DNA of 35,420 bases from an uncultured Bacilli bacterium (GTDB lineage Bacteria > Bacillota_I > Bacilli_A > RF39 > UBA660), in assembly GCA_944332725.1 (NCBI GenBank), contig CALVKO010000009.1, forward strand, positions 1 to 35,420, given 5' to 3'. Below are positions 3,378-8,063 of the stretch, one piece after another. The position numbers were made by a program, and so were the translations under genes. The notes under the pieces were generated by a model. That model was not told where the DNA came from and did no database searches. It saw only the letters and a program-made list of their open reading frames with translations. The first letter of the stretch is position 1. Each line of letters opens with the position of its first letter.

Positions 3378-4604
3378 ATGAAATTAATTAGTGAAATGAA
3401 TCCAAAAGAAGTTTATTCAGAATTATTATTAAATGAAAAATATAATTTAAAACTGATATATCAAGACTTTAACATTTCTGAATTATATGATAGAGCAAGA
3501 GAATTATACAAAATTGAAACAGGTAATGAAAATATTTCAGATAAAGAATTAGAAAAATGGTTACATGATAAATGCTGTTATGAAGTTTTAAGTGATTTAT
3601 TATGGTTAATGATTACGAAATTAAAAGATAGCGATAATTATAAAGATGAGTTTATGTTTTATAATTTTCCTGTTATAATGGATATGATGAAAGATTTTCT
3701 TATCGATTGTCAAGTAGATGAACAATATGATATTAAAAATTTAACGAAATTAACTGAAGAAGAAATAAATAGTTATATTTGTGAAATATTAAAAGAAGTA
3801 GATCCTTCTTTAGAGTGGTTAAATATATATTTAAAGGCTAAAAAAGAAGGAAAAATAATAAATATTAATAACTATTCAAAAGAAGAATTAGAAAAAATAA
3901 GAATCAAATTAAAATTAGATAAAATTCCAAGTGATAGTAATTGTGTTATTATAGATGATGAAAATTATTATTTATTTCTTAAACTTAATAACACATTACA
4001 TGATGTTATCAGTATAATTCACGAATTAATTCATTTTATTATTGTAGAATACAACATTGATTTACCGCCAATTTTATCAGAATTTTTTTCTATTTTTTAT
4101 GAAATATATACTCTATCATATTTACAAAAACAAGGTTTTGATATTAATGAATTATTTGCTATTTATCAAAAAATAAGAATTATCGACTTATCACTTATTT
4201 CTTTAACATTCACACCATTATATAATTATTTAGAAGTTCTAGTTAAAAAAAGAAAAATATCTATAAATGAAGATATAAAATATTATGAAGATGTGTTAGA
4301 ATGGTTAAAAAGAATCAACCAACTTCCTATTAAAAACAACGAAACACAGCCAATTGATTTAGCTTATATGAAATGTGATAAATATATAAATTTTTTATTA
4401 GATGATGAATTTTATGATTTATATCCATATGTTGTTGGTAGTGTCTTAGCATTTGAAGCAATGAAAAAATGTAATAAAGATTTATTAAATAAAATAAGAA
4501 GTTTTATTAATCCAACAAGTATTATTGATCCATATGAAGTTTTTAGTGTAAGTGGTTGTGTGGAAGATGATTTAGTTAGAGTAGGGGAAGGGCGAATTAT
4601 TTGA
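3378..4604 (+). CDS. Putative M3-like zinc metallopeptidase
   Basis: 408 residues, no signal peptide, so cytoplasmic. The zinc-binding HELIH is at 215-219 and is followed by ILSEFFSIFYE, giving the E-x-x-S-x-x-x-E pattern (Glu235, Ser238, Glu242) that provides the third zinc ligand in oligopeptidase F/thimet-type M3 enzymes, 23 residues after the second His. The rest is a divergent helical body, and the protein is shorter than classical PepF (about 600), so it is a distant or minimal relative. It would be expected to cut short peptides. It has its own promoter, a GGGGGA ribosome binding site and a TGA stop, which shows that TGA is a stop codon in this organism. Confidence 0.65.
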   Translation: MKLISEMNPKEVYSELLLNEKYNLKLIYQDFNISELYDRARELYKIETGNENISDKELEKWLHDKCCYEVLSDLLWLMITKLKDSDNYKDEFMFYNFPVIMDMMKDFLIDCQVDEQYDIKNLTKLTEEEINSYICEILKEVDPSLEWLNIYLKAKKEGKIININNYSKEELEKIRIKLKLDKIPSDSNCVIIDDENYYLFLKLNNTLHDVISIIHELIHFIIVEYNIDLPPILSEFFSIFYEIYTLSYLQKQGFDINELFAIYQKIRIIDLSLISLTFTPLYNYLEVLVKKRKISINEDIKYYEDVLEWLKRINQLPIKNNETQPIDLAYMKCDKYINFLLDDEFYDLYPYVVGSVLAFEAMKKCNKDLLNKIRSFINPTSIIDPYEVFSVSGCVEDDLVRVGEGRII

Positions 4605-4623
4605 AAAAATTAAAACATTTAGG

Positions 4624-4653
4624 TTGCTGACATAGTCTGCTATATGGTATAAT
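4624..4653 (+). promoter_or_regulatory. Promoter of the HD-CYTH gene
   Basis: TATAAT at 4648-4653 with either TTGCTG (4624-4629, 18-bp spacer) or CTGACA (4627-4632, 15-bp spacer) as the -35. A strong AAGGAGG ribosome binding site lies at 4660-4666. Confidence 0.65.
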
Positions 4654-4671
4654 TTATTTAAGGAGGCTATT

Positions 4672-6801
4672 ATGGCATTTGGATATATTGAAAACGAAGA
4701 TAAGTCATTAATTGTGGAAGATCCAATTTATGGAAAGATAATTGTACCATATCCTTTTTCTGAAATAGTATTAACAAAAGAAATGCAACGACTATCAGAT
4801 ATTTCACAAAATGGTTTTTCTCAATTGGAATTTAAAGGGTTAGAACAAAATGATAGATTAAGTCATAGTATTGGTGCTTTTTATGTCATGTCTTTATTTT
4901 TAAAAAGATTAGAAGAAATATTGAAAAACTATGATATAGAACTTAGTAAAGATGATAAAGACATTGCCCTATGTTCTATGTTATTACATGATATAGGGCA
5001 TGGCCCATTTTCTCATTCATTAGAGTTGGTAACAAATTATTCACATGAAAAAAGAACCACAGATATATTGCTTGGAGATACAGAAGTAAATCATGTAATA
5101 ACAAAAATTTTTGGAAAACAAAAAGTAAAAAAAATTGCAGGTTTTATAGCAGAGATTAATGATAAAGATGAATTAGGAAAAGATAGTTTTACAAAACTAC
5201 TTAATAATCTTGTTTCCTATCAGTTAGATGCTGATAGAATTGATTACCTACTTCGTGATTCTCATTATGTTGGCATTTCTTCTGCAATAGATTTAAAACG
5301 AATTATTTCAAATATGAATGTTGTTGTTAATAACAATCAAGAATATGAACTTTTAATTGATAGAAAAGGATTGGCAGGCATAGAAAATGTTTTGCTACAA
5401 AGATATCAAATGTATAGAGACGTTTATTTGAGCCCAATATCTGTTTTGGGAGATTTTATATTTGAGAAGATTATAGAAAGATATAGGAATTCTACAATAT
5501 TACATTCAATTCCTGTTTCAAATAGTTTTAAAGTATTATCTTCTAATCCTAAAGTTAGTAATTTAGATGATTTTCTTAAAATGAAAGATGTAGATTTTAA
5601 AAAATCATTTGATATTTTAGCTAAAACAAATTTGGATTTAATCATGGCATATTTATGTGATTTTAGTAATATTAGTGATTATATTTTAATAGATAACGAT
5701 ATTTCAATTGATAAAATAAAAAGTAGATTAAAAGAAATATTTAGAAATATCGAATTAGATAATACTATGTCAATTGTAAGTATTGGAACTAAAACAAAAT
5801 TATATAAGAAAGAACAAAAATTAAATATTCAAAATGGTAATAGAATAATGGATTTAACAGAATGTACAAATCTAATTAGACCACAAGAGGTTTTAGAAGA
5901 TAGATATATATTTTTTAATCCTGAATTATTAAGGATAGAGCTTGGATTGAGTGTGGAAGAGTTTAAAAATTATGATAGTGAGGTAAGAAAGATGATAGAA
6001 GAATTAAATAAGAAACCAGAAGAATTTGAACTAAAGTATATTTTAGGGGATAATTTTGAAGAATCTAATATATTAGATCAAGATACTTTATTGAATCAAA
6101 TTATATCTGTTTTTATGGCAAATGGCTTTAAAATAATATCAACTACAGAAAAACAAAATAATGATGAATATTATGATACAAAAAATTTAGATTTGTATAG
6201 AAATGGTGGGTCATTAAGAATACGGAAAATTGACCAAAAGGGTAAAGAAAAAATAAAGGCTACATGTAAAATGCCACTTGAAAAAGGGGAAGTATATTCA
6301 TCTAGAATTGAAATAGAAGAAAATTTACCAGATGATAATTTTGAAACCTTTAGACAAAAAATGATTGCCTCAAATGCTGCAGTGAATTTTGAAGAAATTC
6401 TAAAATTTCCAATTTTAAATTCTCGTACAAAAAGAACGGATGTTGTGTTAGACAAAAATGGAATTCAAGTATGTCTATCATTTGATAATAGTCAATATAT
6501 TAACCATGCTTTGAATGAAACTTCAGTAACTGATAGAATGATTGAAATTGAAGCAATAGGAGAACTTAATAATAGGATTATACTTAACGAAATACATGAA
6601 TTTATAACATCATCTTTTAAAGGTCTATTATCAATTAACAAACAAAGTAAATATGAAAGAGGTATAAATCGCACATTGCAATTAAATAACTATATTTTAG
6701 CACAGAAAAGCTTTGTGAGTGAAATAAATATAGATAATAATCATTCAAATCCTAATATTGAAGTCTTAGTAAAAAAATTACAAAAAGAAAAAAGACCTTA
6801 A
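4672..6801 (+). CDS. HD-domain dNTPase-like phosphohydrolase fused to a CYTH (triphosphate tunnel) domain
   Basis: 709 residues. Residues 1-440 are a COG1078/SAMHD1-like HD hydrolase: RLSHSIG (His65), LLHDIGHGPFSH (His106, Asp107) and DADRIDYLLRD, where Asp188, Tyr192 and Asp196 match SAMHD1 Asp311, Tyr315 and Asp319. Residues 450-670 are a CYTH domain: EFELK (ExExK at 451-455), YYDT, SLRIRK, KATCK, RIEIEE, EIEAIG and a closing SKYERG. Both sets of catalytic residues look intact. SAMHD1-type enzymes release tripolyphosphate from dNTPs, and many CYTH enzymes hydrolyse tripolyphosphate, so the fusion may clear its own product; that is inference. The ATG sits behind a strong AAGGAGG. Confidence 0.85.
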   Translation: MAFGYIENEDKSLIVEDPIYGKIIVPYPFSEIVLTKEMQRLSDISQNGFSQLEFKGLEQNDRLSHSIGAFYVMSLFLKRLEEILKNYDIELSKDDKDIALCSMLLHDIGHGPFSHSLELVTNYSHEKRTTDILLGDTEVNHVITKIFGKQKVKKIAGFIAEINDKDELGKDSFTKLLNNLVSYQLDADRIDYLLRDSHYVGISSAIDLKRIISNMNVVVNNNQEYELLIDRKGLAGIENVLLQRYQMYRDVYLSPISVLGDFIFEKIIERYRNSTILHSIPVSNSFKVLSSNPKVSNLDDFLKMKDVDFKKSFDILAKTNLDLIMAYLCDFSNISDYILIDNDISIDKIKSRLKEIFRNIELDNTMSIVSIGTKTKLYKKEQKLNIQNGNRIMDLTECTNLIRPQEVLEDRYIFFNPELLRIELGLSVEEFKNYDSEVRKMIEELNKKPEEFELKYILGDNFEESNILDQDTLLNQIISVFMANGFKIISTTEKQNNDEYYDTKNLDLYRNGGSLRIRKIDQKGKEKIKATCKMPLEKGEVYSSRIEIEENLPDDNFETFRQKMIASNAAVNFEEILKFPILNSRTKRTDVVLDKNGIQVCLSFDNSQYINHALNETSVTDRMIEIEAIGELNNRIILNEIHEFITSSFKGLLSINKQSKYERGINRTLQLNNYILAQKSFVSEINIDNNHSNPNIEVLVKKLQKEKRP

Positions 6802-6969: not shown

Positions 6970-7023
6970 TTTATCACCCATTAATATTATTGACATATTA
7001 TTTAAAATTATTTATTAATATAA

Positions 7024-7052
7024 TTGTTAAATTATGGAATATTTGTTATAAT
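7024..7052 (+). promoter_or_regulatory. Promoter of the unknown gene at 7089
   Basis: TTGTTA (7024-7029), a 17-bp spacer and TATAAT (7047-7052) with an extended TGT. It lies inside the longest open frame, which shows that the gene starts downstream of about 7060. Confidence 0.7.
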
Positions 7053-7088
7053 AAAGTAAATAATAAATATAAAAGTAGGTGTTTGAAA

Positions 7089-8063
7089 GTGAAATTTTCA
7101 AATGAATTAGATAAATTTGAACAAACTATATTTGATGATTGCTATAATATGCTACTTTCTTTATTTGATAATAATAATAAAGAGAAAATTACAAATAAAT
7201 TAAATAAACAAAGTAAAAAAATATATAATTCAATTAAAAAAATAATCAACAAAGAGAATAATTTAGATAGTAATTATTTGTATTTATATGAATTAATTAA
7301 GTATCTAAGTATACCAGATTTTGATTTTGTTGAATTATATAATAAAGGAGCAAAAAGATTAGTATATAGTGGCTTAGTAATTGAAGAAAAAGATAAAGAT
7401 AAATATAATTATTATGGTGAGGCTTTTAATGAAATAGGTTTAATATTAATCACGAATATTTGTTTACTAAAAAAATATAATAATAATCAAATAAAATGTA
7501 TAGATGATCTATTATTTAATTCGAATTGGTTATGTAATGCAAATCAATTTAGTACAATTATTAGATTACTTGTATTTGCTATGAACAATGAATTTGATAA
7601 GCCATATAGTGATATTAATTATGTTATTGATTCAAAAATTAATTTAAGAACTAATAAAGGATATTTATATCAATCAGTACCAGTAAATGATTTTTTATAT
7701 GGTTTAATATATGATGGACTACATACAGAAAAACAATTTGACAAATATAGTAGTAGTGGGACATACAAACTATTATGTGAGAAAATAGACGATTTATTTA
7801 ACGATGTTATTAATAACGATAAATTAATTGATAATAATATTATTAAAGAATCAATAATTAATATAGCAGCAATGTTTAATAATAAAATGTATTATTTAGA
7901 ACATTATAAAGTAATTGATAAGGAAAATAAAAAAAGATTAATTCACGATTTTAATATTATATTTAAACAAAATATAAGAGAATATAAATTAGAGTTTACT
8001 AATGAAGATTTATTAAAAATAAATGAACTAGTAAATAAATCAAAAATAAGATTAGAAAATTAG
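7089..8063 (+). CDS. Hypothetical protein, 324 aa, helical, Asn/Lys/Ile-rich
   Basis: I do not recognise this family. The frame opens at 6990, but the promoter at 7024-7052 lies inside it. I therefore take the start as GTG 7089, seven bases after an AGGTG ribosome binding site. The product is predicted cytoplasmic (no long hydrophobic stretch), largely helical and very rich in Asn and Lys. No metal-binding or nucleotide-binding motif stands out. It is monocistronic and ends against a bidirectional terminator shared with holA. Confidence 0.7.
   Translation: MKFSNELDKFEQTIFDDCYNMLLSLFDNNNKEKITNKLNKQSKKIYNSIKKIINKENNLDSNYLYLYELIKYLSIPDFDFVELYNKGAKRLVYSGLVIEEKDKDKYNYYGEAFNEIGLILITNICLLKKYNNNQIKCIDDLLFNSNWLCNANQFSTIIRLLVFAMNNEFDKPYSDINYVIDSKINLRTNKGYLYQSVPVNDFLYGLIYDGLHTEKQFDKYSSSGTYKLLCEKIDDLFNDVINNDKLIDNNIIKESIINIAAMFNNKMYYLEHYKVIDKENKKRLIHDFNIIFKQNIREYKLEFTNEDLLKINELVNKSKIRLEN

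What the first reader, a model, noticed from the sequence alone, without database searches (positions are those of the whole stretch)
4672..6801. dNTPase-like HD enzyme fused to a CYTH triphosphate-tunnel domain
One chain carries an intact SAMHD1-like HD site (His65, His106, Asp107, Asp188) and an intact CYTH signature (ExExK at 451-455, RIRK, RIEIEE, SKYERG). SAMHD1-type enzymes make tripolyphosphate; several CYTH enzymes split it. The fusion could convert dNTP to nucleoside plus smaller phosphates in one protein, or the CYTH part could sense a triphosphate and control the HD site. Such an enzyme could limit phage DNA synthesis.
Basis: partly seen in the sequence, partly recalled or inferred. 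Interest (0 to 1): 0.65.

Follow-up and report, generated by a model that had tools for sequence, protein, structure and literature searches.

The report
dNTPase fused to triphosphate-tunnel enzyme
A gut bacterium carries a single protein that joins a DNA-building-block-destroying enzyme (SAMHD1/EF1143 type) to an enzyme fold that typically splits the very waste product, triphosphate, which the first enzyme releases; the same joined protein recurs in at least 15 other gut bacteria, so the pairing is real and kept by selection, but what it does in the cell is untested.

Summary
Window 4672-6801 (+) encodes one 709-aa protein. Residues 7-450 match the complete EF1143 dNTPase fold, and 451-668 form a CYTH/triphosphate-tunnel (TTM) domain whose best structural match is E. 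coli YgiF, a tripolyphosphatase. I found 15 more members, all fused, in MAGs of Bacilli and Clostridia. Every catalytic residue tested is invariant in both halves, both halves evolve under purifying selection, and their trees agree. Motif rules exclude class IV adenylate cyclase and thiamine triphosphatase and leave inorganic triphosphatase. The best-supported mechanism is dNTP -> deoxynucleoside + PPPi (HD), then PPPi -> PPi + Pi (CYTH). This is inferred, not assayed. The rival, that CYTH senses a triphosphate and gates the HD site, stays open: residues matching SAMHD1's AL1 activator site (D137, R145) are lost. In the window the gene is a single-gene insert of about 2.18 kb with its own promoter, absent from the same place in two congeners that keep both flanking genes. 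No defence role is shown; the patchy, mobile distribution would fit one. CYTH-HD fusions were noted generically before (PMC8233210, citing Iyer and Aravind 2002), so I call this a new variant of a known kind.

The parts
4672..6801 (+). HD-CYTH fusion gene, 709 aa
   Evidence: continuous ORF, same fusion in 16 assemblies
4672..6021 (+). dNTPase half (residues 1-450): complete EF1143/SAMHD1-type fold; R62, H65, H106, D107, H110, H115, E118, H125, D188, Y192, D196, R244, Y252
   Evidence: Z 37 to 3irh/4lrl over model residues 7-450
6022..6675 (+). CYTH/TTM half (residues 451-668): ExExK 451-455, RIR 516-518, RxExE 545-549, EIE 625-627, K657, K660
   Evidence: best match YgiF 5a60 Z 16.6
6676..6798 (+). 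variable C-terminal tail (residues 669-709), not conserved; the last codons (..QKEKRP) equal the original end of the upstream gene
4648..4653 (+). extended -10 promoter element TGG-TATAAT (TG at 4645-4646), followed by Shine-Dalgarno AAGGAGG at 4660-4666; the gene carries its own promoter
   Evidence: sequence read directly; similar elements upstream of most other members; the generic promoter scan did not pick it
4591..6770 (+). insert of about 2.18 kb absent from congeners G006 and G001; holds only the promoter and the HD-CYTH gene
3378..4604 (+). upstream 408-aa orphan gene; its last codons (..EGLKEFQKEKRP in G006) were cut off by the insertion (now ..EGRII)
6990..8063 (+). downstream 357-aa orphan gene; neighbour in the empty site too; lies inside the stretch that is 91-100% identical between the window and sister G002

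Best explanation
A bifunctional dNTP-degrading enzyme. The N-terminal EF1143-type HD domain cleaves a (deoxy)nucleoside triphosphate into nucleoside and inorganic triphosphate (PPPi). The appended YgiF-like triphosphate-tunnel domain then hydrolyses PPPi to PPi + Pi, using metal-binding glutamates E451/E453/E627 (water-activating metal) and E625 (substrate metal), by analogy with YgiF. SHOWN: domain identity, complete folds, intact and invariant catalytic residues, purifying selection on both halves, co-inheritance, and insertion as a single gene. INFERRED: the dNTP substrate, the PPPi substrate, the coupling, and the cellular purpose (nucleotide-pool control).
For: The full EF1143 fold spans residues 7-450 (Z 37.0, 408-411 residues aligned; sequence E 2.9e-29). 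All metal and catalytic HD residues, plus the extra residues that match SAMHD1 H210/D218/H233 (here H110/E118/H125), are invariant. The CYTH half matches the tripolyphosphatase YgiF best (Z 16.6; next 13.8). Motif rules of PMC8233210: no HF before ExExK, so not a class IV cyclase; S514 instead of W/Y in xRxR, so not a ThTPase; ExE kept, so a TTM triphosphatase. dN/dS is about 0.10 for HD and 0.14 for CYTH against two relatives. HD and CYTH trees share their supported splits. The window genome has no other CYTH protein. A second, separate HD-CYTH combination, with a P-loop kinase, occurs in G527 (L051 7592-10216).
Against: No activity was measured. TTM folds also act on ATP, ThTP and polyphosphate, and some CYTH domains may only bind. 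The two active sites belong to separate folded domains whose relative placement is not well determined (pTM 0.63), so channelling is not shown. PPPi hydrolysis is not needed for dNTPases that work without a CYTH partner.
Confidence: 0.5

Rival explanations
1. Sensor model: the CYTH half binds a triphosphate (PPPi, polyphosphate or a nucleotide) and gates the HD dNTPase allosterically; hydrolysis is slow or incidental.
For: The positions of the SAMHD1 AL1 activator residues D137 and R145 (activator role) are L34 and a variable small residue or N/E at 42 in this family, never Arg, so the usual guanine-nucleotide activation may be replaced by something else. CYTH is also fused to an HTH in a putative regulator directly upstream of one member (L025 2478-3215).
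Against: All catalytic metal ligands are invariant; a pure sensor would be free to lose some. BT4208 (2q14), a plain HD homologue, also lacks the Arg, so its loss does not demand a new regulator.
Confidence: 0.25
2. Anti-phage effector: a mobile single-gene dNTP-depletion system that starves phage DNA synthesis, with CYTH disposing of or sensing PPPi.
For: Patchy distribution (2 of 18 congeners; about 8 full-length or near-full-length copies among 386 same-family genomes), single-gene insertion, recombination of the insert between species. Known dNTPase defences such as dGTPases and Clover work by nucleotide depletion (PMC12265719). HerA lies next door in L046, and candidate defence genes lie near L060 and L066.
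Against: Most neighbours are housekeeping genes (holA, rplQ, parA, leuS, proS, ileS, ftsZ, secA). No conserved partner gene. Not matched by PADLOC beyond the HD motif. PADLOC 'PDC' families are only candidates.
Confidence: 0.15
3. Two unrelated activities on one chain: the HD half acts on dNTPs, while the CYTH half acts on polyphosphate or another triphosphate (general phosphate metabolism), with no mechanistic coupling.
For: CYTH domains fuse with many partners (CHAD, exopolyphosphatase, nucleotidyl kinase; PMC8233210), and CYTH+DJ-1-like open frames were seen here.
Against: Co-inheritance of just this pair across Bacilli and Clostridia, and a second HD-CYTH pairing in G527.
Confidence: 0.1

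Closest known systems
EF1143 (Enterococcus faecalis dNTPase; PDB 2O6I, 3IRH, 4LRL)
   Same: Whole fold over residues 7-450 (Z 37), HD catalytic set, HD-associated region
   Different: 21-23% identical; no CYTH domain; position of the SAMHD1 AL1 Arg kept in EF1143 (QRLR) but lost here
SAMHD1 (human; R. irregularis 9MR6)
   Same: Catalytic HD residues and H210/D218/H233 equivalents (H110/E118/H125), R366/Y374 equivalents (R244/Y252)
   Different: D137/R145 activator-site residues not conserved; no SAM domain; CYTH added
E. coli YgiF (CYTH-CHAD tripolyphosphatase; PDB 5A60)
   Same: TTM fold (Z 16.6, 192 residues), ExExK, RxR and ExE metal and phosphate ligands
   Different: Carries CHAD, not HD; 16-17% identity
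CYTH-HD hydrolase fusions noted by Iyer and Aravind 2002 (as cited in PMC8233210)
   Same: General domain pair CYTH + HD
   Different: The original paper was not held, so it is unknown whether the HD there is EF1143-type or the arrangement the same
Clover CloA and Dgt-type dGTPase defence proteins
   Same: HD-type dNTPase chemistry
   Different: Dgt-type proteins; no CYTH; Clover needs the CloB partner; sequence similarity here limited to the HD motif

Membership tests
EF1143/SAMHD1-type dNTPase | HD metal-binding set H..HD..D | tested here: met
   H65, H106, D107, D188; invariant wherever the stretch is present
EF1143/SAMHD1-type dNTPase | Extra catalytic residues H210/D218/H233 (SAMHD1) | tested here: met
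   H110, E118 (acid kept as Glu), H125 invariant
EF1143/SAMHD1-type dNTPase | Complete fold including the C-terminal lobe | tested here: met
   Z 36-37, about 400 residues aligned, model 6-450
EF1143/SAMHD1-type dNTPase | Guanine-nucleotide activator site residues (SAMHD1 D137, Q142, R145) | tested here: not met
   L34, Q39, variable non-Arg at 42; only Q142 kept. BT4208 also lacks the Arg, so this bears on regulation, not on the fold family
EF1143/SAMHD1-type dNTPase | dNTP -> deoxynucleoside + PPPi, tetramer | not testable with these tools
   needs purified protein
CYTH/TTM inorganic triphosphatase | ExExK on strand 1 | tested here: met
   E451-F-E453-L-K455 invariant in 16
CYTH/TTM inorganic triphosphatase | RxR without the ThTPase aromatic before it | tested here: met
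   S514-L-R516-I-R518 invariant
CYTH/TTM inorganic triphosphatase | ExE for both metals | tested here: met
   E625-I-E627 invariant
CYTH/TTM inorganic triphosphatase | Triphosphate tunnel fold | tested here: met
   AF2 pLDDT 87.3; YgiF Z 16.6, SaTTM Z 13.8
CYTH/TTM inorganic triphosphatase | PPPi hydrolysis | not testable with these tools
   assay needed
Class IV adenylate cyclase | HFxxxxExExK and ExA instead of ExE | tested here: not met
   LN at the HF position (445-446), ExE kept
Thiamine triphosphatase | W/YxRxR | tested here: not met
   SLRIR
Dgt-type anti-phage dGTPase | Full-length match to dGTPase models above curated cut-off | tested here: not met
   TIGR01353 23.3 bits vs cut-off 152; NF041026 18.9 vs 400; PADLOC dGTPase 64 residues only

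The most novel reading that the evidence does not exclude
A self-contained, mobile nucleotide-depletion gene: one protein destroys dNTPs and immediately splits the PPPi it makes (or reads it as a signal), spreading between gut Bacilli and Clostridia as a single-gene insert, possibly as phage defence; it would also name a direct source for PPPi, the substrate of TTM triphosphatases whose presence in cells has been questioned.
Probability: 0.15. Interest if true: 0.75.

Novelty: new variant of a known kind. Interest (0 to 1): 0.5.

Why it matters
TTM/CYTH tripolyphosphatases are common, but whether their supposed substrate PPPi exists as such in cells has been questioned (PMC3440374). SAMHD1-type dNTPases release exactly PPPi. 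A family in which the two are one chain, with both sites kept intact, makes that link directly testable with one purified protein, and gives a defined case in which a dNTPase may have swapped its nucleotide-activator site for another control.

Tried and rejected
Viral contigs (three scans), the phage collection and the plasmid collection: no copy of the fusion, only HD-alone homologues in the last two. Class IV adenylate cyclase and ThTPase readings rejected on motifs. Profile search of PDB sequences with the CYTH half gave only insignificant hits; the fold search did find relatives. Assembly or frameshift artefact rejected: same junction in 16 assemblies. Long open frames with CYTH in other genomes (G055, G134, G173) are not HD fusions but CYTH with PLP-enzyme-like or DJ-1-like sequence (read by eye). 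The generic promoter scan was uninformative in this AT-rich region. Iyer and Aravind 2002 and the EF1143 paper are not held. The AF2 model gives no reliable inter-domain geometry (pTM 0.63) and no coordinates were available in the Python box, so the distance between active sites was not measured. CYTH family not listed among whole-model fold matches because the HD half fills that list; hence the separate CYTH model.

Full report
Observation. Window 4672-6801 (+) is one uninterrupted ORF of 709 aa. Pfam finds HD (63-140), HD_assoc_2 (206-275) and CYTH (487-579), all above curated cut-offs.

The HD half. Sequence search puts it nearest to EF1143 (2o6i, E 2.9e-29), BT4208 (2q14) and Aquifex O67745 (2hek), and then SAMHD1. 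The AF2 model of the full protein on a 16-sequence alignment (pLDDT 82.7, pTM 0.63) matches EF1143 over residues 7-450, with about 410 residues aligned and Z 37. So this half is a complete dNTPase, not just an HD motif. Catalytic residues are invariant in the family where scorable: R62, H65, H106, D107, H110, H115, E118, H125, D188, Y192, D196, R244, Y252. H110/E118/H125 line up with SAMHD1 H210/D218/H233, which are proposed to matter for catalysis (PMC7045340). In contrast, the SAMHD1 activator-site residues D137 and R145 are L34 and a variable non-Arg residue; only Q142 (Q39) is kept. EF1143 keeps the Arg, BT4208 does not.

The CYTH half. Modelled alone (pLDDT 87.3), its best match is E. coli YgiF with tripolyphosphate (Z 16.6, 192 residues), clear of the next group at 13.8. 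It keeps ExExK, RxR and ExE, lacks the HF motif of class IV cyclases and the aromatic residue of thiamine triphosphatases; by the published rules this leaves a triphosphatase (PMC8233210). In YgiF the equivalent glutamates bind the two metals and activate water (PMC4641920).

Distribution. One scan of 84,980 species genomes with the CYTH half returned 15 loci, all full-length or contig-cut HD-CYTH fusions, from MAGs labelled Bacilli/Bacillales/Mycoplasma and Clostridia. Several isolate names point to rabbit, goat or sheep gut samples (my reading of the record titles). Within the window's own family (386 genomes) there were about eight full-length or near-full-length hits including the window and one copy cut off after residue ~350 (G460), plus standalone CYTH relatives (G314, G539). 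Among 295 phylum genomes with 116 CYTH matches, only this family's two members lie in an HD fusion (other long frames checked, except G167 and G095). The window genome has no other CYTH protein. HD and CYTH trees share their supported splits (Bacilli and Clostridia clades both 100/100), and the fusion HDs form one clade, which fits one fusion inherited as a unit. Nei-Gojobori dN/dS is about 0.10 (HD) and 0.14 (CYTH) against two relatives; only the tail is free to vary.

Mobility. In congeners G006 and G001 the DNA is collinear with the window up to 4590/4591 and again from 6770/6771. The piece in between, about 2.18 kb, holds just an extended -10 promoter and the HD-CYTH gene. In these congeners the upstream orphan gene ends ..GEGLKEFQKEKRP or similar; in the window it ends ..GEGRII, and the fusion gene now ends ..LQKEKRP with the following sequence shared with the empty site. 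The right junction thus lies in a shared A-rich stretch, CAAAAAGAAAAAAGA. Sister G002 has the same left and right junctions; the gene is 97-100% identical while upstream sequence is about 85%. So the gene arrived as a single-gene insert and was then probably exchanged between species by recombination (inference). Other members sit in unrelated, mostly housekeeping contexts, and most have their own -10 element.

Second architecture. G527 encodes an 874-aa HD-CYTH-P-loop kinase protein (L051 7592-10216). G024 has, at the syntenic place, a CYTH-kinase of 472 aa that starts with the same MTVNDIWG but lacks the HD. The CYTH call there is weaker: hhalign E 2.4e-4 with probability 44%; Pfam 23.1 bits against a cut-off of 23.2.

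Interpretation. The most economical reading is a two-step enzyme, dNTP -> deoxynucleoside + PPPi -> PPi + Pi. Steps shown: folds, intact sites, selection, co-inheritance. Steps inferred: substrates, coupling, purpose. A sensor role for CYTH is the main rival. A defence role is possible, given the patchy, mobile distribution, HerA beside one member and PADLOC candidate genes near two, but it is unproven; no conserved defence partner exists.

Novelty. CYTH fused to 'HD hydrolase' is mentioned in the literature (PMC8233210, citing Iyer and Aravind 2002). My searches of the held library found no paper on a dNTPase-CYTH fusion, but the library is partial. Hence: new variant of a known kind.

Noticed in passing
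window 4591-6770; L097 around 5033-5036; L098 around 4530-4535: Single-gene insert with an empty site in two congeners; it cut off the end of the upstream orphan gene, and the inserted gene now ends with that gene's last codons (QKEKRP).
   Followed up: yes
L051 7592-10216 and L076 1682-3100: HD-CYTH-P-loop kinase protein in G527, and the syntenic G024 protein in which the HD domain has been deleted, leaving CYTH-kinase.
   Followed up: partly
L025 2478-3215; L060 3286-3798: Directly upstream of two HD-CYTH genes lies another CYTH gene; in L025 it is an HTH-CYTH protein (possible triphosphate-responsive regulator).
   Followed up: partly
L047 2710-4044: HD-CYTH gene cut off after residue ~350, followed by a tail that by eye resembles the C-terminus of a large serine recombinase: a likely mobile-element insertion in the gene.
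   Followed up: no
L046 1967-3778: HerA-type ATPase gene directly downstream of HD-CYTH (same strand); HerA occurs in defence pairs.
   Followed up: partly
L060 1157-2357: PADLOC candidate pair PDC-M04A/B upstream of the CYTH and HD-CYTH genes.
   Followed up: no
window 3378-4604 and 6990-8063: Two orphan genes with no Pfam family above cut-off, found in the same order in several congeners; function unknown.
   Followed up: partly
L080 and L081: CYTH domain in one open frame with a DJ-1/PfpI-like sequence (read by eye) in two other Bacilli genomes.
   Followed up: no
L050 7014-8408: 464-aa protein with an unknown N-terminal part and a C-terminal CYTH, at the rplQ-parA spot where G307 carries HD-CYTH: possible shared insertion spot.
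   Followed up: no
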